Assembly: GCF_001942495.1 (NCBI RefSeq) | Contig: NZ_MKZS01000001.1 | Location: 2,742,563 to 2,796,426 of the forward strand | Direction: 5' to 3' | Source of the DNA: Moorena bouillonii PNG | Lineage (GTDB): Bacteria; Cyanobacteriota; Cyanobacteriia; Cyanobacteriales; Coleofasciculaceae | Length of the DNA: 53,864 nt | Part shown: positions 34,841 through 42,810 of the stretch, piece by piece | Layout: each line of letters opens with the position of its first letter | How positions within the stretch are numbered: position 1 is the first letter of the stretch | Program-made: the position numbers and the translations under genes | The notes under the pieces: model-generated | What the model saw: only the letters and a program-made list of their open reading frames with translations | Told to the model about the DNA's origin: nothing | Database searches by the model: none

Positions 34841-35195
34841 GAGGCATGCATGCTAAAGTTGACTACAACAGCTTTTGTTGCTTGTATCAATGTCCTTTGA
34901 ATCCGTAGTGCTATACCTAATCGGCATCCCACGCTCCTTCAGGATTGGATAAGAGACCGAAGAGGGAGAAGAGGTACCAGTAACAACTTATTAACACGTT
35001 TCTCCTGATCGAGATCTGCTCGATCCTGTCATCCATTACATCCGTTAAACCATCTCTTGCCCCTCTGGCAGTTAGGAATTACCCACGCTAAATCTATATA
35101 TAGTGTTTTTTTTTAGATAAACACGCTATATATATGTTTTTTTGGGGCTATTGACATAAGTCCTAAAAATTTCCAAAAAAAGTTTGCCCAAACCC
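34841..35195. other. Spacer between ureF and the tRNA array
   Basis: Contains a CATGCATGC palindrome, a TCGAGATCTGCTCGA near-palindrome at about 35009-35023 and AT-rich DNA. No gene is seen. Confidence 0.6.
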
Positions 35196-35225
35196 TTGAC
35201 ACCGTTTGTAGTATTTTTGTAGTAT
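35196..35225 (+). promoter_or_regulatory. Promoter of the tRNA array
   Basis: TTGACA (35196-35201), 18-base spacer, TAGTAT (35220-35225), about 220 bp before the first tRNA. A second TTGACA lies upstream at about 35152. It is the best sigma70-type match in the region and points into the array. Confidence 0.6.
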
Positions 35226-35446
35226 ACAAACATAGCGGACAGGAAAGAGTCAAAACGCTCGAATCCCAAAGCTTACACGGAACCTTGACAACTAAATATG
35301 TAACATACCTTTTGATTCATGTTTGGATATAACTGTGTTTGCTCATCACGTGGGGATGGACCCTTGGGTTGATTCCCCACAGAGTGAACCCAGAGATTTA
35401 TCTAAAAGATTGATCTAAACTCCAACGGATAAACTGCTCAAGTCCT

Positions 35447-35520
35447 GGGGCTGTAGCTCAGACGGTCAGAGCGCCTGTCTGTCGAACAGGAAGTCGCGGG
35501 TTCGATTCCCGTCAGCCTCG
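35447..35520 (+). tRNA. tRNA-Asp (GTC)
   Basis: Complete 74-nt cloverleaf: acceptor GGGGCTG/CAGCCTC with one G-U pair, anticodon stem CCTGT/ACAGG with loop CTGTCGA (anticodon GTC), T-arm GCGGG-TTCGATT-CCCGT, discriminator G. First gene of the array. CCA is not encoded. Confidence 0.93.
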
Positions 35521-35545
35521 CTCTTTGCAGTCGCTTTTATCGGTT

Positions 35546-35569
35546 GCAGGTGCAAATCCTGCTCCAATC
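35546..35569 (+). pseudogene. Possible tRNA 3' remnant
   Basis: GCAGG-TGCAAAT-CCTGC is a perfect T-arm-like hairpin whose loop starts TGC instead of TTC. No matching 5' half is visible. It is followed by a tandem TCCAATCAGTGAC duplication. Confidence 0.3.
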
Positions 35570-35590
35570 AGTGACTCCAATCAGTGACCT

Positions 35591-35662
35591 AGCAGCGTAG
35601 CTCAACGGTAGAGCACCTGGCTCATAACCAGGAGAGTGCGGGTTCGAGTCCCGCCGCTGCGA
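35591..35662 (+). tRNA. tRNA-Met (CAT), elongator-type
   Basis: 72 nt plus encoded CCA (35663-35665). Anticodon stem CCTGG/CCAGG with loop CTCATAA (CAT), T-arm GCGGG-TTCGAGT-CCCGC. The acceptor pairs at positions 2-7 but A1 faces G72. The D-arm TAGCTCAACGGTAGAGC is normal. A lysidine-modified isoleucine identity cannot be excluded. Confidence 0.85.
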
Positions 35663-35668
35663 CCACAT

Positions 35669-35740
35669 ACGGAGATGGTGTAACTGGCAACATGACGGTC
35701 TCCAAAACCGTTGATCTGAGTTCAAATCTCAGTCTCCGCG
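35669..35740 (+). tRNA. tRNA-Trp (CCA)
   Basis: 72 nt. Anticodon stem ACGGT/ACCGT with loop CTCCAAA (CCA), T-arm CTGAG-TTCAAAT-CTCAG, acceptor CGGAGA/TCTCCG with position 1 (A) unpaired against C72. The D-arm is short and unlike typical chromosomal tRNA-Trp. Confidence 0.82.
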
Positions 35741-35744
35741 CTCC

Positions 35745-35819
35745 CGTGCCGTAGGCAAATTTGGTTAAGCCGCGTGCCTTTCAAGCAGGTGATTGCGGGT
35801 TCGATCCCCGTCGGCACGA
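35745..35819 (+). tRNA. tRNA-Glu (TTC)
   Basis: 75 nt. Acceptor CGTGCCG/CGGCACG is perfect; the D-stem GGC/GCC and T-arm GCGGG-TTCGATC-CCCGT are present. Loop CTTTCAA gives anticodon TTC. The anticodon stem has one G-G mismatch (position 28/42). Confidence 0.82.
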
Positions 35820-35823
35820 TGAA

Positions 35824-35896
35824 TGCCCTGTAGCTCAGTTGGAAGAGCAGCGAGCTGTTAACTCGATGGTCGCGGGTTCGATCCCTGCCAGGGCAG
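35824..35896 (+). tRNA. tRNA-Asn (GTT)
   Basis: 73 nt. Acceptor TGCCCTG/CAGGGCA perfect, loop CTGTTAA (GTT) on a CGAG/CTCG stem, D-arm TAGCTCAGTTGGAAGAGC, discriminator G. CCA is not encoded. Confidence 0.93.
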
Positions 35897-35927
35897 TCAG
35901 GAGGGGTTTCATTTTTATCCTTTGTAT

Positions 35928-36001
35928 CCCCCGGTAGCTCAGTTGGGTAGAGCGCTCGCCTGAAAAGCGAGAGGTCGTCGGTTCGATGCCGACCTTGGGG
36001 G
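35928..36001 (+). tRNA. tRNA-Phe (GAA)
   Basis: 74 nt. Anticodon stem CTCGC/GCGAG with loop CTGAAAA (GAA), T-arm GTCGG-TTCGATG-CCGAC. The acceptor has CCCC/GGGG plus one C-T mismatch at position 5/68, so it is slightly irregular. Confidence 0.87.
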
Positions 36002-36029
36002 ACTGTCACTTGCTATTGCAAGTGCTAAA

Positions 36030-36075
36030 TGCCGGATGGACGATTGGCAAGTCGCCGTGACTCTGAATCACGGAG
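36030..36075 (+). pseudogene. tRNA-Gln (CTG), 5' half, interrupted
   Basis: Holds the acceptor 5' strand TGCCGGA, D-arm GAC-GATTGGCAA-GTC and a perfect anticodon arm CGTGA-CTCTGAA-TCACG (anticodon CTG). No T-arm follows. The 3' half lies at 37466-37495, after a TnpB element; its acceptor strand TCCGGCA is the exact complement of TGCCGGA. Joining the halves at a shared AG gives a 5-base variable loop AGCAG and a complete cloverleaf. Confidence 0.85.
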
Positions 36076-36142
36076 AGCGATAACTTAGTTGAGGATTTGC
36101 AGTACAATACGGTACTATAAGTATGTCGTTAACTGTAGTTAA

Positions 36143-36241
36143 GTGACTAAGTATCTCAAGCTAAGAGTTGCTGCGGATTATCTAGGCGTTAACGTCAGAA
36201 CGCTAGAAAGATGGGAAAATCAAGACATGTGTATGGACTAA
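36143..36241 (+). pseudogene. Truncated IS607-type TnpA (MerR-like HTH only)
   Basis: GTG-started frame of 32 residues: KYLKLRVAADYLGVNVRT then LERWENQDM, stop. This matches the N-terminal helix-turn-helix of IS607 serine recombinases (pattern K-x-A-x-x-LGV-x-x-x-TL-x-RW-x-x-x-G). The resolvase catalytic domain is absent. It ends 37 bp before tnpB. Confidence 0.75.
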
Positions 36242-36278
36242 TAAAATACGAAACTCAAATCAAGAATGACCCAGACTT

Positions 36279-37358
36279 ATGCGACGAGCATATCAAACAA
36301 GATTAAAGCTCAATAACAGACAAAAGACCTTGATGGCTCGACACGCGGGCTATTATAGGTGGGTTTGGAATTGGGCTTTAAATATGTGGAATGAAGCCTA
36401 TAAAGCCGAACTCAAACCTTCGGCTAATAAGCTGAAAAAATTTTATACCCATCATGTTAAACCTCAATACCCCTGGCAGTCTACCTTAAGCTCTAGGGTT
36501 TATCAATTTGCCTTCAGGCACTTATCAGAAGCATTTAAACGCTTTTTTAAAGGCGTGGCTAAACATCCGAAGTTTAAGAAAAAAGGTAGAAATGATAGCT
36601 TTACCTTAGATAATTGTGGAAAAGTCATGGAGTTTTCAGGAACTCGATTAAAACTACCTTTTATTGGATGGGTTAGCACTTATGAACCACTGCCAGAAAT
36701 CCAGACGAAGCGGGTGACAATCAGTCGAGTAGCCGATTCTTGGTATATTTCTGTATCCTACGAGTTTGAACCTAAAGCTACTGTGAAATCTAGAGAACAC
36801 CTGGGTGTTGATGTTGGAGTTAAAGTTCTGGCTACTTGCTCGGATGGAACTGTGTTTCCTAATCCCAGGGCTTATAAACAAGCCCAGAAAAAACTGGCTA
36901 GACTTCAACGAGAACTTTCTAGAAGAAAACTAGGTTCTGCTAACAGAAATAAAACCAAGCTAAAGCTTGCGTTAGCTCATCAAAGCATTGTTAACATCCG
37001 CAAAGATACAATCCACAAACTTACCTCTTGGCTTTGCAAAAACCACGCAGTCATTGGATTAGAAGATTTAAATGTTTCCGGTCTGTTGAAAAACCACAAG
37101 CTAGCGGGTGCGATCGCTGATTCGGCATTCTATGAGATTCGTCGTCAACTCGAATATAAATCCGAGTGGTACGGGTGCCAACTGGTATTTGCAGATAGGT
37201 TCTATCCATCAACTAAAACCTGTTCAAGCTGTGGTCACATTCAAGAAATGCCACTGAAAGAACGAGTTTTTAATTGTGAGGCTTGCGGTTACACCGCTGA
37301 TCGCGATTTGAATGCAAGTCGTAATTTAGAACGATACGCCGGGGGCTACCTGGTTTGA
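36279..37358 (+). CDS. tnpB: TnpB RNA-guided endonuclease
   Basis: A 359-residue TnpB, full length for the family. RuvC residues are D178 (GVDVGVK), E262 (IGLEDLNVSG) and Asp in DRDLNAS (D341/D343). A Cys4 zinc knuckle sits in between (CSSCGHI near 314-320, CEACG near 334-338). The N-terminal OrfB helix-turn-helix region begins RRAYQTRLKLNNRQ. TnpB uses an RNA from its own 3' end to cut DNA matching the flank of the element. Here the flank is the 3' part of tRNA-Gln, so it would cut uninterrupted copies of this tRNA and favour element retention. No frameshift is visible. Confidence 0.93.
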   Translation: MRRAYQTRLKLNNRQKTLMARHAGYYRWVWNWALNMWNEAYKAELKPSANKLKKFYTHHVKPQYPWQSTLSSRVYQFAFRHLSEAFKRFFKGVAKHPKFKKKGRNDSFTLDNCGKVMEFSGTRLKLPFIGWVSTYEPLPEIQTKRVTISRVADSWYISVSYEFEPKATVKSREHLGVDVGVKVLATCSDGTVFPNPRAYKQAQKKLARLQRELSRRKLGSANRNKTKLKLALAHQSIVNIRKDTIHKLTSWLCKNHAVIGLEDLNVSGLLKNHKLAGAIADSAFYEIRRQLEYKSEWYGCQLVFADRFYPSTKTCSSCGHIQEMPLKERVFNCEACGYTADRDLNASRNLERYAGGYLV

Positions 37359-37465
37359 GCCTGTGTTAGTGGGAAGTGCCGACACCCCACGCAATCCCAG
37401 TTATCTGGAAGAAAGCAGGAAGGGAACTTTAATACGGTTTGAGCCGTGTTGTGTAAGTTTTCCGT

Positions 37466-37495
37466 AGCAGGTTGGTTCGAGTCCAACTCCGGCAT
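37466..37495 (+). pseudogene. tRNA-Gln (CTG), 3' half
   Basis: AGCAG, then T-arm GTTGG-TTCGAGT-CCAAC, then acceptor strand TCCGGCA, discriminator T. Exact partner of the 5' half at 36030-36075. Confidence 0.85.
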
Positions 37496-37862
37496 TCTAT
37501 TGTTGAAAGTTAACCGGTTGTTCGCCTTTGGCGTTCCCGTAGGGTAGGTTAACCGGTTGAAGGTTAACCGGTTGTTCGCCTTTGGCGTTCCCGTAGGGTA
37601 GGTTAACCGGTTGAAAGTTAACTGGTTGTTCGCCTTTGGCGTTCCCGTAGGGTAGGTTAACCGGTTAAAGGTTAATCGGTTGTTCGCCTTTGGCGTTCCC
37701 GTAGGGTAGGTTAACCGGTTGTAAGCTTCAACCAAACAACCTAGGCTACTTCGGACGCCAAAGGCGAACAACCTTGGCCAATAGGCCACGCTACGCGAAC
37801 AACCAAACAACCTTTAACCTTCAACCCAAATGACTTTTGATAGCAACTTGGTATCAAATTAT
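37496..37862. repeat. Four 54-bp tandem repeats and related modules
   Basis: Copies start at 37521, 37575, 37629 and 37683 (TTCGCCTTTGGCG onset, GGTTAACCGGTTG palindromic end) with few changes. 37730-37820 holds inverse and related modules (GGCGAACAACC, TTGGCCAATAGGCC, CACGCTACGCGAAC). Direct adjacency without unique spacers excludes CRISPR. No gene is seen. Confidence 0.88.
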
Positions 37863-37936
37863 GCTCCTGTAGCCCAATTGGCAGAGGCGACCGTTTTAAA
37901 AACGGTCAGTTGTGGGTTCGACTCCCACCAGGAGTA
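37863..37936 (+). tRNA. tRNA-Leu (TAA) with short variable loop
   Basis: 74 nt plus encoded CCA (37937-37939). Acceptor GCTCCTG/CAGGAGT (one G-U), anticodon stem ACCGT/ACGGT with loop TTTAAAA (anticodon TAA), T-arm GTGGG-TTCGACT-CCCAC, A73. The variable loop is only five bases (CAGTT), whereas bacterial tRNA-Leu normally has a long variable arm. There is no group I intron, unlike the usual cyanobacterial tRNA-Leu(UAA). Confidence 0.83.
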
Positions 37937-37940
37937 CCAA

Positions 37941-38014
37941 CGGGGTGTAGCGCAGTTTGGTAGCGCGCTTGCTTTGGGAGCAAGATGTCGCAGGTTCAAA
38001 TCCTGTCACCCCGA
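37941..38014 (+). tRNA. tRNA-Pro (TGG)
   Basis: 74 nt. Acceptor CGGGGTG/CACCCCG perfect, D-arm TAGCGCAGTTTGGTAGCGC, anticodon stem CTTGC/GCAAG with loop TTTGGGA (TGG), T-arm GCAGG-TTCAAAT-CCTGT, A73. Two bases after the CCA of the preceding tRNA, so co-transcribed. Confidence 0.94.
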
Positions 38015-38018
38015 CTTT

Positions 38019-38048
38019 ACCCCTGTGATGGAATTGGTAGACATCACT
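38019..38048 (+). pseudogene. tRNA-Leu remnant, 5' part
   Basis: Acceptor ACCCCTG followed by a Leu-like D-arm (TGGAATTGGTAGACA). The anticodon arm is lost where an IS200/IS605-like remnant begins. A likely 3' part lies at 38438-38458. Confidence 0.6.
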
Positions 38049-38436
38049 CCCCCAGAACGAGTGTCTTGCAGGATGAATGCTTCCCCCACCTGCTAAGCGA
38101 GGTGTGGGTATCCGTCTTGATTACAAGGGCACTTATCCCTCGCGACAGGCGGCATTCTCGCCGAACAACCAGGACTTTTGCTGGATTGTTCCCCCAAGTC
38201 GTTTCCGCTATAGGGCTTATGTTTAGGAACTTTTACCTAGAGTCTGACGTGTATAAACCGACTACAAAGGATTTACAGGCTTGATTTTCCTTTCGTTAAG
38301 AGGTCGTGCCTCCAGGTTGCTCAGAATCTTGTTCTGCCCTTTGCCGTACCGCTCAAGATAGATAAATTATATCACAATTTGCCGCTCCTTGAACCCCACC
38401 TGCGTTCTCGTGGTGGGGGAATGCGTCGCTCATTTT
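38049..38436 (-). mobile_element. Internally deleted TnpB-type element in tRNA-Leu
   Basis: Read on the minus strand: a left-end hairpin (CCCCCACC...GGTGGGG, about 38392-38420), then a 31-residue TnpB C-terminal fragment (38262-38357, beginning LERYGKGQNKIL; compare NLERY at the end of the intact TnpB), then a 3' end with hairpin CCCACACCTCGC...GCAGGTGGGGG (about 38080-38108) and a GAACGAGTGTC tail. The N-terminal three quarters of tnpB are gone. Confidence 0.65.
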
Positions 38437-38437
38437 T

Positions 38438-38458
38438 GTTCAAATCCTGTCGGGAGTA
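38438..38458 (+). pseudogene. tRNA-Leu remnant, 3' part
   Basis: T-loop and stem TTCAAATCCTGTC followed by CGGGAGT, which pairs with ACCCCTG of 38019-38025 at six of seven positions. The T-stem 5' strand, variable arm and anticodon arm are missing. Confidence 0.5.
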
Positions 38459-38466
38459 GCAATTAT

Positions 38467-38545
38467 CCAGATGTGGCGCAGTTTGGTTTAGTCCAGTTGA
38501 CCAACAGTCAATTGGTCATAAGCGGAAATTCTGCCCCTCGGATCC
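38467..38545 (+). pseudogene. Possible degenerate tRNA
   Basis: ATGTGGCGCAGTTTGGTTTA resembles a D-arm, as in the Pro tRNA above, but no complete anticodon or T-arm can be folded. This may be the decayed remains of a tRNA. Confidence 0.3.
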
Positions 38546-38547
38546 AA

Positions 38548-38621
38548 ACCCCTGTAGCCCAATTGGCAGAGGCTCTAGGCTTAGAACCTAGGTGTTGCTG
38601 GTTCAAATCCAGTCAGGGGTA
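38548..38621 (+). tRNA. tRNA-Leu (TAG) with short variable loop
   Basis: 74 nt. Acceptor ACCCCTG/CAGGGGT perfect, anticodon stem CTAGG/CCTAG with loop CTTAGAA (TAG), T-arm GCTGG-TTCAAAT-CCAGT, A73. The variable loop is five bases. The D-arm TAGCCCAATTGGCAGAGGC is identical to that of the Leu(TAA) gene at 37863, so the two share an origin. Confidence 0.87.
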
Positions 38622-38622
38622 T

Positions 38623-38697
38623 CGCAGGGATGGAGCAAGAGTAGGCTCGCCAGGTTCATACCCTGGAAATCAGTGAGTGCAACTCTCACCCCTGCCA
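38623..38697 (+). tRNA. tRNA-Met (CAT), initiator-like
   Basis: 75 nt plus CCA (38698-38700). C1 faces C72 unpaired, the hallmark of bacterial initiators, and the ATGGAGCA start is initiator-like. Anticodon stem CCAGG/CCTGG (only two of three initiator G-C pairs), loop TTCATAC. The D-loop lacks GG and the T-loop reads TGCAACT, so the D-loop/T-loop contact is probably altered. Confidence 0.75.
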
Positions 38698-38700
38698 CCA

Positions 38701-39018
38701 ATTTGCAGGCATGATCATATATCATCTCTGCTTGAATACTTATTATTGAAAGGAGTTCGTCAATTTTAAATTGTAAAGTAACAAATTAAAATTAACAATT
38801 AATGATTTACATGACTCTAACTATTAGAAGTATATCCTGACTACTATTGCTAGGTTTGAATAATAGTAAAAATCTTCATAACTCTTTCCCACTGTTCCCT
38901 GTTCCCTGTTCCCTGTTCCCTTTTTAGATAAATACTATGTTTACCTAATAAGTTAACTAACAGCAGGGTTTACAAGTGATTAGCTAGGAGATACAAATGA
39001 AGAGATAAGGAGGGTAAA
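38701..39018. other. Spacer in the tRNA array
   Basis: AT-rich DNA with TTCCCTG heptads at about 38890-38922. AAGGAGG at 39007-39013 is the ribosome binding site of the next gene. No tRNA is seen. Confidence 0.7.
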
Positions 39019-39654
39019 ATGACAACTATGACTGTCACAGATGCTCTAGCAGAGTTAACCTTGCTGCAAAAGCGCATTGACTCAGCCAGAGCAGCTTTGG
39101 ACAACAACACCTTAATTTCTGTGGTTGAAGTCGGTCAAGTGCCAACAGGCTTCAAATCACGAGAAGATTATGAGATAAAAGCTAAAGCGGCTTTGCAAAA
39201 AGTGGATGCCTTGATTGCCAGAAGGCGGACGATCAAGAGAGTAATTGTCTTATCCAATGCTTCTACAATGGTTACGATTGCTGACCAAGAGATGACTGTG
39301 GCAGAAGCCATTGAGATGAAGATGTTTATCATGTATTATGAAGCAGTTATCGGTACTATGCAGTCAGCTTATACTAAAACCCTGAATCAGTATAAGATGG
39401 CACAAGCACGAGTCAAAGAAAGACTTGATAAACTAGCTTTGGAAGTGTTGGGGCAGAATGCATCGGTTGGTTCACAGAAGTATCAATCCTTGGCAGATAG
39501 CTTTCTAGCTAGAGAAGGGGTTGAACTACTCGATCCCACTAACCTGGCTGAAGAGCTTGAAAGACGACAAACCTTTATTGAACAGTTCAAGTCAACAGTT
39601 GATCGAGTACTCTCTATTAGCAATGCCAGGACAATGATCGAAATTCCCGATTAA
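39019..39654 (+). CDS. Hypothetical coiled-coil protein inside the tRNA array
   Basis: A 211-residue mostly helical protein with a strong AAGGAGG site 6 bases before the ATG, so it is very likely translated. The N-terminal TDALAELTLLQKRIDSARAAL looks like a coiled coil, and the motif SNASTMVTIADQEMTVAEAIEMK (about 90-112) is similar in layout to small helical proteins of the DIP1984 type, but I cannot assign it. An ISNARTMIEIPD echo of SNASTMV closes the protein. No membrane segment or catalytic motif is visible. It lies between tRNA-Met and tRNA-Gln on the same strand and may have come with the array. Phage or plasmid origin is possible but unproven. Confidence 0.7.
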   Translation: MTTMTVTDALAELTLLQKRIDSARAALDNNTLISVVEVGQVPTGFKSREDYEIKAKAALQKVDALIARRRTIKRVIVLSNASTMVTIADQEMTVAEAIEMKMFIMYYEAVIGTMQSAYTKTLNQYKMAQARVKERLDKLALEVLGQNASVGSQKYQSLADSFLAREGVELLDPTNLAEELERRQTFIEQFKSTVDRVLSISNARTMIEIPD

Positions 39655-39708
39655 AATAGTGATAGGTGCTGGTCACTCGAAAATCTCTAAATTTATGGTT
39701 TTTAAGTA

Positions 39709-39778
39709 AGATGGATAGCTCATGGTAGGGCACATGATTTTGGTTCATGAAGTGTTGGTTCAAATCCGACTCCATCTT
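39709..39778 (+). tRNA. tRNA-Gln (TTG)
   Basis: About 70 nt. Acceptor AGATGGA/TCCATCT perfect, anticodon stem CATGA/TCATG with loop TTTTGGT (TTG), T-arm TTGG-TTCAAAT-CCGA. The D-arm is short (TAGCTCATGGTAGGGC). 54 bp after the preceding protein gene. Confidence 0.82.
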
Positions 39779-40026
39779 CGGATAAATTTAAAGGTCAAAG
39801 GTTAAAATTTAACCCTTAAACCTCAATCATCAAACCTTAGCTTATCAACTTTCAAACCATAAAATTCAACCATCGATAAAATCCAGGGACTATGGTTGTA
39901 GGTTCCATAAAACCTTGAGGTTTCCACCTGGCTGAGTGGTCAGCATTCTCACCTTTTTAAACAATGGGTATCAATCGGGAATCGGGAATCGGGAATCGGG
40001 AATCGGGAATCGGGAACTAACCCAAC
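39779..40026. repeat. Spacer with a tRNA-like fragment and GGGAATC heptads
   Basis: CACCTGGCTGAGTGGTCAGC (39926-39945) resembles the 5' end of a Ser/Leu-type tRNA but runs into GGGAATC heptads at about 39976-40014 with no 3' half. TTAACCTTTAAACC-like repeats fill 39785-39875. Confidence 0.5.
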
Positions 40027-40146
40027 TATAGCAATTCTACGACTTGTGAGGTACAAATATCTGGGTTAATGGGAGCAGGGAGCAGGGAGCAGGGAGCAGG
40101 TAAGAGAAACCATTCTGTGTACCTCATGAGTCCTAGAAACGCTATA
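40027..40146. repeat. 120-bp inverted-repeat element enclosing GGGAGCA heptads
   Basis: Ends at 40027-40056 and 40117-40146 match at 24 of 30 positions (TATAGC...GAGGTACA) and belong to the 19513 family. The interior is GGGAGCA heptads. The rest of the spacer to 40382 is AT-rich with CTCTTGC heptads (40288-40340). Confidence 0.75.
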
Positions 40147-40382
40147 TACTTGATATCATTACTTAATTCAGCAACGCAAATTTGCTAGTCTCATTAGTCA
40201 GCAACGATTATAGCAATAATAAATCAATTATAAAAAAAATATCGTTTTTTATATTACCCAAAATCTTTCTATACTTGATTAAATCTTGTCTCTTGCCTCT
40301 TGCCTCTTGCCTCTTGCCTCTTGCCTCTTGCCTCTTGCCTTTCCTTAAGGGAGTATATTCACAATTGAAATAAAAATACTAT

Positions 40383-40829
40383 ATGACAATTTATTTTTAC
40401 GGTACTCGCCAAAAACCCTATGGTTGTTTTTCCAACTTCTCCCGACATGGCTTTGAGCTAGATGAATTGTGGTGGGCTACTAGTGAGCATTTCTTCCAAG
40501 CCCAAAAATTTGTGACTACTGATTCCTCTTGGTATGACAAAATCCGTAACGCAAAAACACCAAAGGAAGCAGCAAAAATGGGACGGGATCGCTCTCATCC
40601 TCTTCGTGATGATTGGGAAAAAGTCAAAGATGAGATTATGCAGCGAGGAGTGTTACGAAAATTTGAAACCCATGGTGATCTTCGCCAGTTACTACTTGGT
40701 ACAGGTGATCAGCTAATTGTTGAGAATTCACCCATAGATTATTACTGGGGTTGTAGTGCTGATGGTAGTGGTAAAAACAAGCTAGGAGAGATTTTAATGA
40801 CAGTCAGGGCAATATTGCGTGACAAGTAA
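40383..40829 (+). CDS. NADAR domain protein (YbiA-like)
   Basis: A 148-residue single-domain NADAR protein: YFYGTRQKPYGCFSNFSRHGFELD at the start, WWATSEHFFQAQKF near 29-42 (family Glu and His), IRNAKTPKEAAKMGR near 56-70 and YYWGCSADGSGKNKLGEILM near 119-138. NADAR proteins are N-glycosidases; characterised members act on riboflavin-pathway intermediates or remove ADP-ribose from guanine, and some are antitoxins to DarT1-like toxins. No DarT-like partner is in the window. It lies within the tRNA array region, in the same direction. Confidence 0.9.
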   Translation: MTIYFYGTRQKPYGCFSNFSRHGFELDELWWATSEHFFQAQKFVTTDSSWYDKIRNAKTPKEAAKMGRDRSHPLRDDWEKVKDEIMQRGVLRKFETHGDLRQLLLGTGDQLIVENSPIDYYWGCSADGSGKNKLGEILMTVRAILRDK

Positions 40830-41081
40830 CTTGATGTTAACGATAGCATTTTTATTTGAGTTGTGAACAGAGGATTTATAGAAAAAGGGAGCAGGGAGCA
40901 GGGAGCAGGGAGTAGTAGGAAAGAGATCCAAAAAGTTTTGATGTTATGAACAATCTTGCAAAAGTATTTTTATGATACTGTTTGCGTCAATTCTTGTCCA
41001 CTGTTCCCTATTCCCTGTTCCCTGTTCCCGACTTCTGCAAGAAGTCTAATAATTAGGAATTTGTATTGTTTTAAACAACTT
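40830..41081. repeat. Heptad spacer with a copy of the ureF-inserted repeat
   Basis: GGGAGCA heptads at about 40889-40909. Positions 40986-41050 match the repeat inside ureF (CAATTCTTGTCCACTGTTCC onset, CAAGAAGTCTAAT end, TTCCCTG heptads between). Confidence 0.75.
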
Positions 41082-41156
41082 GGTGTCTGAAGCCAAAGTG
41101 GTCGCGGCGCTGGTTTGTGGAACCAGTCATAACGGGTTCAAGTCCCGTCAGACACC
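41082..41156 (+). tRNA. tRNA-His (GTG)
   Basis: 75 nt with extra G-1 (41082) pairing C73. Acceptor GTGTCTG/CAGACAC, anticodon stem CTGGT/ACCAG with loop TTGTGGA (GTG), T-arm ACGGG-TTCAAGT-CCCGT. Last tRNA of the array. Confidence 0.92.
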
Positions 41157-41159
41157 CTT

Positions 41160-41199
41160 AGGTGCGACCCGTGATTGCTCGCCATCACGGGTCGCACCT
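41160..41199 (+). terminator. Hairpin closing the tRNA array
   Basis: A perfect 16-bp stem (41160-41175 with 41184-41199, 8-base loop TGCTCGCC) four bases after tRNA-His. There is no T-run, so it may be a processing or stabilising hairpin rather than a textbook terminator. Confidence 0.6.
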
Positions 41200-41267
41200 G
41201 TTAAAACAGATTCAAAATGTCTTAAACTAATGGCAAATGTATAGTTATAACATCAAAGAAAATTTCT

Positions 41268-41687
41268 ATGCAGCTTGGTCCCGGTTTATTAATAACATTT
41301 TTGTACTACTTCACCTGCACAACCCTCATTACCACTGTATTTTCCTCGCAAGTTTTGAGGCTAAGTCTGGTGACAGGGATGCCCTATAGTGTTGGTGTAA
41401 TTTTTGGCCTAATCGGTGGTTTATTAGGTACCTACTTCAATCGAACCGTTACAGTATCCCTAGAATTCAAGAGTAAGAAAGTTTTTAGCGCTGCTCTCCA
41501 GGATGCTCTGACCGAGATGGGGTTTGAGGAAACATCAAAGCTAGAAGATTTTGTAGTTTACCAACGCCCAGCCCTCAGTAATATTTTTTCTGGTAAAGTT
41601 TTTGTACAAATTGGTAAAGGGAAAGCTACCATTGCTAGCCGTTCCAGAAATATTAAGCGAATCAGCCGTAAACTATCAAAGAATTAG
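41268..41687 (+). CDS. Conserved-type membrane protein of unknown function
   Basis: A 139-residue protein with two N-terminal transmembrane helices (about residues 7-28 and 40-58, the second with GVIFGLIGGLLGTYFN) and a soluble C-terminal half (about 65-139) rich in Lys/Arg, with a compact alpha/beta pattern (FSAALQDALTEMGFEE, FVVYQRPALSNIFSGKVFVQIGKGKATI). This tail resembles a small PH-like or ferredoxin-like fold by pattern only. No catalytic motif is visible. It starts at an ATG with no strong ribosome binding site. Confidence 0.6.
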   Translation: MQLGPGLLITFLYYFTCTTLITTVFSSQVLRLSLVTGMPYSVGVIFGLIGGLLGTYFNRTVTVSLEFKSKKVFSAALQDALTEMGFEETSKLEDFVVYQRPALSNIFSGKVFVQIGKGKATIASRSRNIKRISRKLSKN

Positions 41688-41799
41688 AGACACTATCCAT
41701 AATTTTTATAAAACCTATTTTTTAAACAACCTTGCGATAAATAAATATCATGGAAATAGTATGGCTATAGCCAACACACTAGAGAATACACCATAGAAC

Positions 41800-42810
41800 C
41801 TAACCGCTTAAATGATTAAGTCTTCGCAAAGCTCCAATGATTACTAACTTACCGTATAATTTAGTTCGGGATCCATAAATTTCTACGTTAATCCTGCTAC
41901 CATCTTTACACTGACCAGGAAAGGTAAAGTATAGATTTTTACCCTGACCCTGAAGACAATTAGTGATTCGTTCATCGACAAATTTACGCTTGTCTTCTGC
42001 CACCACTTGTAGTAATGATTGCCGAGAAATAAGTTCACCAAAGGAATAGCCAAAAATTTCGGCCATTTTGGGATTAACATATAGAAAATTACCTTTACTA
42101 TAAATTATGTAAATTCCCAGAGAAGAGAAATTATCTGAACTCTCAGTGAGCTTATTTGTTGGGGATAAAACTGGAGATTTCTGAGGAGACTGTTGCCCTA
42201 GCTGTTGTTGTTGACTGTGGAGTTGAGCATTCTCTAAGATCAAAGCCATGGACTCAGCAGTCATTTCCATTAAACGGGCAGATTTAGAGCCAAAGTGTCC
42301 CGCCTGGGAATGCATTAGGGTGATAATGCCTAATAACCTCTTACCCCTGAGAATAGGTACAGCTAATACTGAGCGTACTTGATAGGGCTGATCAGGTAAG
42401 GTAAGCCAGCGGTCATCATCGATAGTGTCCTTTATCAGCCCAACTTCGCGATGGCGGCTAACCCAACCAGCTAAACCTTGGTCTAGAACCTGACCAATGA
42501 TCTGCTTTTTATATCGTGGGAGGGTTGCACCGCGAGCTAGAATACTCTCAGTGACCACACCATCAGTATTGAGTAAAAACAGGCTACTCTCCTCTGCCTT
42601 AGTGAGGCGACCAGCAACGTGGAGTATATCTTGTAACAAAGCTCTAAGCATCAGGGAGCCAGAGGCTGTTTGCATTATGGTGCCATAGGTTTTAAATAGC
42701 TGATGTTGAGCACTGAAGACAATTCGTGTAGCTTTAAGTTGATCCACTTGTCGGCGCAGTGCTTTCAATTCCTGAATCAGCTGTTGTTTAGATTTATTCA
42801 GATCACTCAT
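41800..42810 (-). CDS. GAF-PAS sensory protein without output domain
   Basis: The protein is 336 residues from the chosen start. A short coiled coil (MSDLNKSKQQLIQELKALRR) leads into a GAF domain (about 40-190, TKAEESSLFLLNTDG, VLDQGLAGWVSRHREVG, SVLAVPILRGKRLLGIITLMH) and a C-terminal PAS domain (about 225-330, GIYIIYSKGNFLYVNPKMAEIFGYS). No kinase, cyclase or HTH follows, so it probably works by binding partners. The ATG at 42810 has GGAGGT five bases upstream on the minus strand and is preferred over 42825. The ligands are unknown. Confidence 0.82.
   Translation of the reverse strand: MSDLNKSKQQLIQELKALRRQVDQLKATRIVFSAQHQLFKTYGTIMQTASGSLMLRALLQDILHVAGRLTKAEESSLFLLNTDGVVTESILARGATLPRYKKQIIGQVLDQGLAGWVSRHREVGLIKDTIDDDRWLTLPDQPYQVRSVLAVPILRGKRLLGIITLMHSQAGHFGSKSARLMEMTAESMALILENAQLHSQQQQLGQQSPQKSPVLSPTNKLTESSDNFSSLGIYIIYSKGNFLYVNPKMAEIFGYSFGELISRQSLLQVVAEDKRKFVDERITNCLQGQGKNLYFTFPGQCKDGSRINVEIYGSRTKLYGKLVIIGALRRLNHLSG

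What the first reader, a model, noticed from the sequence alone, without database searches (positions are those of the whole stretch)
36030..37495. tRNA-Gln(CUG) split by a TnpB element and exactly restorable
The 5' half (acceptor, D-arm, anticodon arm CTCTGAA) and 3' half (T-arm, acceptor) are 1.39 kb apart, with acceptor strands TGCCGGA and TCCGGCA fully complementary. Joining at a shared AG gives a normal 5-base variable loop. The insert carries intact tnpB and an IS607-like tnpA stub. The TnpB guide, if taken from the right flank, would be tRNA-Gln sequence, so TnpB would target uninterrupted copies of a tRNA gene. The join is read from sequence; the targeting is inferred from known TnpB biology.
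Basis: partly seen in the sequence, partly recalled or inferred. Interest (0 to 1): 0.75.

Follow-up and report, generated by a model that had tools for sequence, protein, structure and literature searches.

The report
Jumping gene splits backup tRNA gene
In this cyanobacterium a small jumping gene carrying an RNA-guided DNA cutter has landed cleanly inside a spare glutamine tRNA gene, so its guide RNA should recognise the unbroken form of that gene; relatives still have the gene whole, and the mechanism is of a known kind.

Summary
A 1393-bp element (36078-37470) sits in the variable loop of a tRNA-Gln(CTG) gene in a cyanobacterial tRNA array. The 3 of 3 other same-genus genomes searched hold the gene uninterrupted, one identical to the join over 73 bases. 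The element belongs to an IS607-type family: intact tnpB under purifying selection, a covarying omega-RNA at the right end, a 2-bp AG core, and a 29-aa tnpA remnant; one relative carries a longer, broken IS607 tnpA behind the same left end. Three other insertions of the family also have empty sites. Seven of eight distinct left junctions read AGAG, the likely TAM. But the tRNA location looks incidental: 0 of 17 other copies examined lie in a tRNA. No second near-match to the target was found in the genome, the guide folds on itself, and no intron family was hit. The tRNA looks like a dispensable member of a trn-operon-like array. Ordinary mechanism, unusually clean example.

The parts
36030..36077 (+). 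5' half of tRNA-Gln(CTG): acceptor strand, D-arm, anticodon arm (CTCTGAA loop) and variable-loop bases GAGAG; ends in the left AG core (36076-36077)
   Evidence: identical to the uninterrupted gene in G015
36078..37470 (+). IS607-type tnpB element, 1393 bp, nothing duplicated beyond the 2-bp AG core (right AG 37469-37470)
   Evidence: boundaries from empty sites and from other family copies
36143..36241 (+). tnpA remnant: N-terminal HTH of an IS607 transposase (VTKYLKLRVAADYLGVNVRTLERWENQDMCMD, stop)
   Evidence: 74% over 23 aa to the longer TnpA behind the same left end in L116; Pfam HTH/MerR hits only below cut-off
36279..37358 (+). tnpB, 359 aa, RuvC motifs (D178, E262, D343; catalytic assignment recalled) and CSSC/CEAC zinc ribbon present
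   Evidence: dN/dS about 0.1 against 7 copies, two of them identical
37341..37470 (+). omega-RNA scaffold (3' part), ends GCAG next to the guide
   Evidence: covarying helices over 16 right ends
37471..37490 (+). inferred TnpB guide (first 20 nt of the right flank) = T-arm of the tRNA
   Evidence: position after the conserved right end; guide use inferred from known TnpB biology
37471..37494 (+). 3' half of tRNA-Gln(CTG): T-arm and acceptor strand TCCGGCA
35196..35225 (+). promoter-like TTGACA-18-TAGTAT with two TGTAGTAT boxes upstream of the array, like the TrcR box reported for the Anabaena trn operon
   Evidence: exact double box in window, L033 and L035; single box in L034; spacing counted by eye; box sequence from passages of PMC10272220
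35447..41157 (+). tRNA array holding the split gene
   Evidence: 12 tRNAs by ARAGORN and by Rfam

Best explanation
An IS607-type insertion sequence, moved by a serine-recombinase TnpA acting on a 2-bp AG core, inserted into the AGAG of the variable loop of a spare tRNA-Gln(CTG) gene in a trn-operon-like array and so broke that gene (insertion and empty site shown; the recombinase mechanism inferred from the family). It has lost tnpA apart from a short remnant but keeps tnpB and its omega-RNA (shown). TnpB bound to an omega-RNA that ends GCAG plus about 16-20 nt of right flank would cut AGAG + T-arm, i.e. the restored tRNA gene, so that an empty copy arising by excision, present on a sister chromosome or arriving by transfer is repaired from the filled copy and the element is retained (inferred, not tested). 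The tRNA itself is simply inactivated; CAG codons are presumably read by the remaining tRNA-Gln(TTG) genes (inferred).
For: Empty sites in 3 of 3 other same-genus genomes searched, one identical over 73 bases. In an order-wide search 19 of 195 genomes matched; 15 of the 19 hold 72 or more of the 73 tRNA positions in one piece, the own genome is split, and G001, G002 and G195 have only 40-41-base matches. Three further insertions (L040, L041, L089) have empty sites whose BLAST pieces fit one AG core: L040 in G014 and G000, L041 in G014 and G015, L089 in G015 and G013. Left junctions: 7 of 8 distinct ones read AGAG, the eighth ACAG and lies on another element's right end. IS607 link: L116 has the same left end followed by a longer IS607 TnpA in broken frames. 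omega-RNA: 98.3% of 288 cells paired versus 38.9-44.4% for slid versions; covariation 0.535 against a shuffled mean of 0.232, reached by 0 of 500 shuffles. TnpB: NF040570 at 1.6e-94, above its cut-off; ISDra2 TnpB at 2.2e-52; dN 0.07-0.11 and dS 0.81-0.87.
Against: No cleavage, expression or excision data. No intact cognate tnpA was found: the element search of the own genome gives no further left-end match; the own genome has 16 IS607 TnpA matches, but only two of these (L109, L112) were compared and they are 45-46% identical to the stub. So present mobility is doubtful. The guide folds on itself (-5.3 kcal/mol over 20 nt, the most stable of 16 guides, though only -1.6 over 16 nt). NCBIfam's IS200_TnpB model scores higher than IS607_TnpB, both far below cut-off, so TnpB itself does not mark the element as IS607. 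In one search two measures were not exceptional (pairs with change on both sides, 188 of 500 shuffles as high; further pair types, 460 of 500). Some flanks do not fit a simple empty site: L040 in G015 (about 1.7 kb between the pieces), L089 in G014 (about 0.2 kb), L041 in G000 (about 3 bases too many).
Confidence: 0.8

Rival explanations
1. IStron-like: the element is removed from RNA by self-splicing, so the tRNA still works.
For: The join gives a normal tRNA, and IStrons combining a group I intron with IS genes are known (PMC4227781, start of abstract in search listings).
Against: No Rfam intron family at E up to 1 in 35000-42000. The non-coding parts are about 200 nt (partly tnpA remnant) and 112 nt, the latter being omega-RNA. 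Seven other copies with both ends known are not in tRNAs.
Confidence: 0.03
2. Domesticated TnpB: the element stays in the array because its omega-RNA is made when the array is induced and serves a regulatory or protective role.
For: Same orientation as the array; TrcR-like boxes upstream; tnpA lost while tnpB is kept.
Against: Absent from 3 of 3 same-genus relatives searched. Purifying selection was measured between copies of the family, so it is not specific to this one. The own genome has no other near match to TAM+guide.
Confidence: 0.06
3. TnpB is intact but already inert here: a passenger whose T-arm guide hairpin and lack of cognate tnpA make it neither mobile nor self-targeting.
For: Guide hairpin -5.3 kcal/mol over 20 nt; no further left-end match and no close tnpA seen in the own genome.
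Against: tnpB frame, RuvC motifs and omega-RNA are intact, so decay is not visible.
Confidence: 0.25

Closest known systems
IS607-family elements (TnpA serine recombinase plus TnpB)
   Same: Insertion at a 2-bp core without further duplication, IS607 TnpA remnant, tnpB downstream
   Different: AG core here; IS607 itself inserts at GG (passages of PMC6188088). tnpA is lost
ISDra2 TnpB (IS200/IS605) and the donor-joint homing model
   Same: TnpB sequence relative; guide from the right flank; target would be the restored donor joint (passages of PMC8612924)
   Different: Left-flank motif AGAG rather than TTGAT; a serine recombinase family rather than the IS200/IS605 TnpA (recalled)
RAGATH-18-guided IS607 TnpBs (ISFba1)
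   Same: IS607 TnpB with a purine-rich TAM ending in G (5'-AGGAG in 18 of 22 strains, 5'-GAGGG in 4; passages of PMC11061315)
   Different: No RAGATH-18 match in the Rfam search; AGAG here is inferred from junctions only
Anabaena trn operon
   Same: Long tRNA array with a TGTAGTAT box over the -10 region (passages of PMC10272220)
   Different: Here on the 8.26-Mb contig rather than a megaplasmid, with tRNAs broken by mobile elements

Membership tests
IS607-family insertion sequence | Serine-recombinase TnpA encoded in the element | tested here: inconclusive
   Only a 29-aa HTH remnant in the window; a longer but frame-broken IS607 TnpA follows the same left end in L116
IS607-family insertion sequence | Insertion at a 2-bp core shared by both ends, no longer target duplication | tested here: met
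   AG core; empty tRNA site in G013 and G015; L040 in G014 with a 2-base overlap
IS607-family insertion sequence | tnpB of the RNA-guided nuclease family | tested here: met
   NF040570 above cut-off
TnpB RNA-guided nuclease (OMEGA) | RuvC D/E/D and zinc ribbon | tested here: met
   GVDVG 176, GLEDLN 260, DRDLNAS 341, CSSC 315, CEAC 333; alignment; catalytic assignment recalled
TnpB RNA-guided nuclease (OMEGA) | omega-RNA at the right end with conserved structure | tested here: met
TnpB RNA-guided nuclease (OMEGA) | TAM-dependent guided cleavage | not testable with these tools
   AGAG inferred from left junctions
IStron (group I intron plus IS) | Self-splicing intron core | tested here: not met
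   No intron family among matches with E up to 1
tRNA-specific transposon | Recurrent insertion in tRNA genes | tested here: not met
   7 of 7 other copies with both ends known give no tRNA when flanks are joined; 10 of 10 places with only the right end give no tRNA and no T-loop motif. L090 and nine distant relatives make up the ten

The most novel reading that the evidence does not exclude
Because cyanobacteria are often polyploid (recalled) and the split gene lies in an array that may be stress-inducible, this TnpB could act as a local gene drive: when the array is induced its omega-RNA is co-transcribed with the tRNA halves, and empty arrays on sister chromosomes or in incoming DNA, and duplicate tRNA-Gln genes such as those in G013, are cut and converted or lost.
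Probability: 0.1. Interest if true: 0.55.

Novelty: new member of a known kind. Interest (0 to 1): 0.3.

Why it matters
It is a clean natural case with the filled site and several empty sites, one of them identical over 73 bases, so the donor-joint retention model can be tested with the native target. It also raises a specific question: does a guide that folds into a T-arm hairpin still work? G014, whose site reads AGAA instead of AGAG, is a natural TAM variant for such a test.

Tried and rejected
Self-splicing or IStron: no intron family hit. tRNA-specific targeting: 0 of 17 other copies examined are in a tRNA. A second tRNA-Gln(CTG) in the own genome: of 57 matches to RF00005, 11 are in the array and 46 elsewhere; I fetched stretches covering the 46 and ARAGORN typed 45 of them, one Gln(ttg) (L071) and none Gln(ctg); the untyped one is a 34-bit match in L087. 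A direct search with the intact locus finds only the two halves in the own genome. Plasmids: one record, Nostoc, 26% of the query. Literature: searches listed no paper whose title or abstract start concerns a TnpB element in a tRNA gene; the lists were capped and the library lacks most subscription papers. No structure prediction was run.

Full report
What is there. The window (G000:C1:2742563-2796426) holds a tRNA array with 12 tRNAs recognised by ARAGORN. Between tRNA-Phe and tRNA-Leu(TAA) lie the two halves of a tRNA-Gln(CTG) (36030-36077 and 37471-37494), separated by 1393 bases. The exact join is called tRNA-Gln(ctg) by ARAGORN. The host is a cyanobacterium near Moorena: the best match among named genomes to its TnpB is Moorena sp. 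SIO3H5 at 87%; the genus of G000 itself is not named by any search.

Empty sites. A search of 20 genomes of the family found the flanks contiguous in the three other same-genus genomes. In G013 and G015 the left and right pieces overlap by two bases, the AG found at both edges of the element; in G014 one base differs there. The join of the window halves is identical to G015 over 73 bases and one mismatch from G013 and from G014. G014 reads AGAA where the others read AGAG. ARAGORN calls all three tRNA-Gln(ctg) and also finds an uninterrupted tRNA-Gln(ctg) in G006 and G004 of another genus. In an order-wide search 19 of 195 genomes matched the intact locus: 15 have 72 or more of the 73 tRNA positions in one piece (their anticodons were not all typed), G001, G002 and G195 have 40-41-base matches that I did not resolve, and G000 is split. 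A split copy elsewhere with weakly matching halves could have been missed.

The element. tnpB (359 aa) matches NF040570 guided_TnpB at 1.6e-94 and ISDra2 TnpB at 2.2e-52, with RuvC and zinc-ribbon motifs in place (catalytic assignment recalled). Against seven other copies dN is 0.07-0.11 and dS 0.81-0.87; two of the seven, L042 and L043, are identical, and L089, whose longest frame is 289 aa, was left out. In front of tnpB is a 29-aa open stretch resembling the HTH of IS607 TnpA; G013 holds a copy with the same left end followed by a longer IS607 TnpA in broken frames. The own genome has 16 IS607 TnpA matches, 15 over the cut-off. Of these only L109 and L112 were compared, at 45-46% to the stub, and the element search shows no further left-end match in the own genome.

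Junction rules. In one search, 18 of 18 distinct places whose match reaches the end of the right-end model read GCAG; 13 other hits, mostly to more distant relatives, stop short of it, so this count leans towards GCAG. Sixteen of the 18 were aligned. Of 8 distinct left junctions, 7 read AGAG (window, L039 = L088, L041, L089, L040, L044, L116) and one reads ACAG (L042 = L043), which is the right end of another element. A weak left-end match (L007, E 0.0084) was not counted. Three further insertions have relatives with joined flanks, judged from the coordinates of BLAST pieces: L040 in G014 (2-base overlap) and G000; L041 in G014 and G015 (3-base overlaps); L089 in G015 and G013. Not fitting a simple empty site: L040 in G015, L089 in G014, and L041 in G000 by about 3 bases. 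This fits IS607-type exchange over a 2-bp core; IS607 itself uses GG (PMC6188088, passages). AGAG is a plausible TAM, close to AGGAG reported for other IS607 TnpBs (PMC11061315, passages).

omega-RNA. RNAalifold on the 16 right ends gives four helices. With that structure 98.3% of 288 cells pair, against 38.9-44.4% when slid; covariation 0.535 against a shuffled mean of 0.232, reached in 0 of 500. Two other measures were not exceptional (188 of 500 and 460 of 500). The structure was derived from the same alignment, so it leans towards itself, but helix 2 has changes on both sides in 6 of 8 pairs.

What the guide is. The first 20 nt after GCAG are the T-arm. TnpB biology (PMC8612924, passages) then predicts cutting of the restored tRNA gene. 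In the own genome the TAM+guide pattern with up to 3 mismatches hits only the element's own right junction. G013 has three tRNA-Gln genes with the same or a one-base-different T-arm behind AGAG, which shows that a second target can exist. The guide is the most self-structured of 16 family guides (-5.3 kcal/mol over 20 nt; next L039 at -4.5, the rest -1.5 or weaker; over 16 nt it is -1.6), a point against efficient targeting.

Not a tRNA specialist. Seven of seven other copies with both ends known give no tRNA when their flanks are joined, and ten of ten further places with the right end only (L090 and nine more distant) show no tRNA and no T-loop motif on the right.

Why the host tolerates it. 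ARAGORN typed 45 tRNAs outside the array; one is Gln(TTG), none Gln(CTG), though that list is incomplete (see Tried and rejected). The array also holds a tRNA-Gln(TTG). Upstream is a TTGACA-18-TAGTAT promoter-like site with two TGTAGTAT boxes, kept in G013 and G015 and single in G014, like the TrcR box of the Anabaena trn operon, which is silent until translational stress (PMC10272220, passages). So the broken gene is probably a spare in a conditional array (inferred).

Verdict. The finding is confirmed and its inference is sound, but the mechanism is the standard one for TnpB elements and the tRNA location looks incidental. TnpB as a drive in multicopy replicons is already described for plasmids (PMC11870625, abstract and outline).

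Noticed in passing
window 38021-38460: A second mobile remnant (about 370 bp; four other matches of 240 bases or more in the own genome) breaks the array. Its right flank is the 3' part of tRNA-Leu(GAG) and its left flank the 5' part of the neighbouring tRNA (typed Ser(aga) in G014, Leu(cag) in G004 and G006), so insertion plus deletion fused two tRNAs. G013 has the same; G014 has both uninterrupted.
   Followed up: partly
window 35196-35225: TrcR-like double TGTAGTAT box and promoter-like site upstream of the array, conserved in G013 and G015 and single in G014.
   Followed up: partly
window 37502-37725: Tandem repeat of period 54, 4.1 copies, just downstream of the split tRNA.
   Followed up: no
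L033:2261-2526 (G013): A second tRNA-Gln, with anticodon TTG, next to tRNA-Gln(CTG), with the same AGAG + T-arm; not called in the window, G014 or G015 at that place.
   Followed up: no
L042, L043 (G013): Two identical copies sit directly against the right end of another element of the family, with the same left flank but different right flanks.
   Followed up: no
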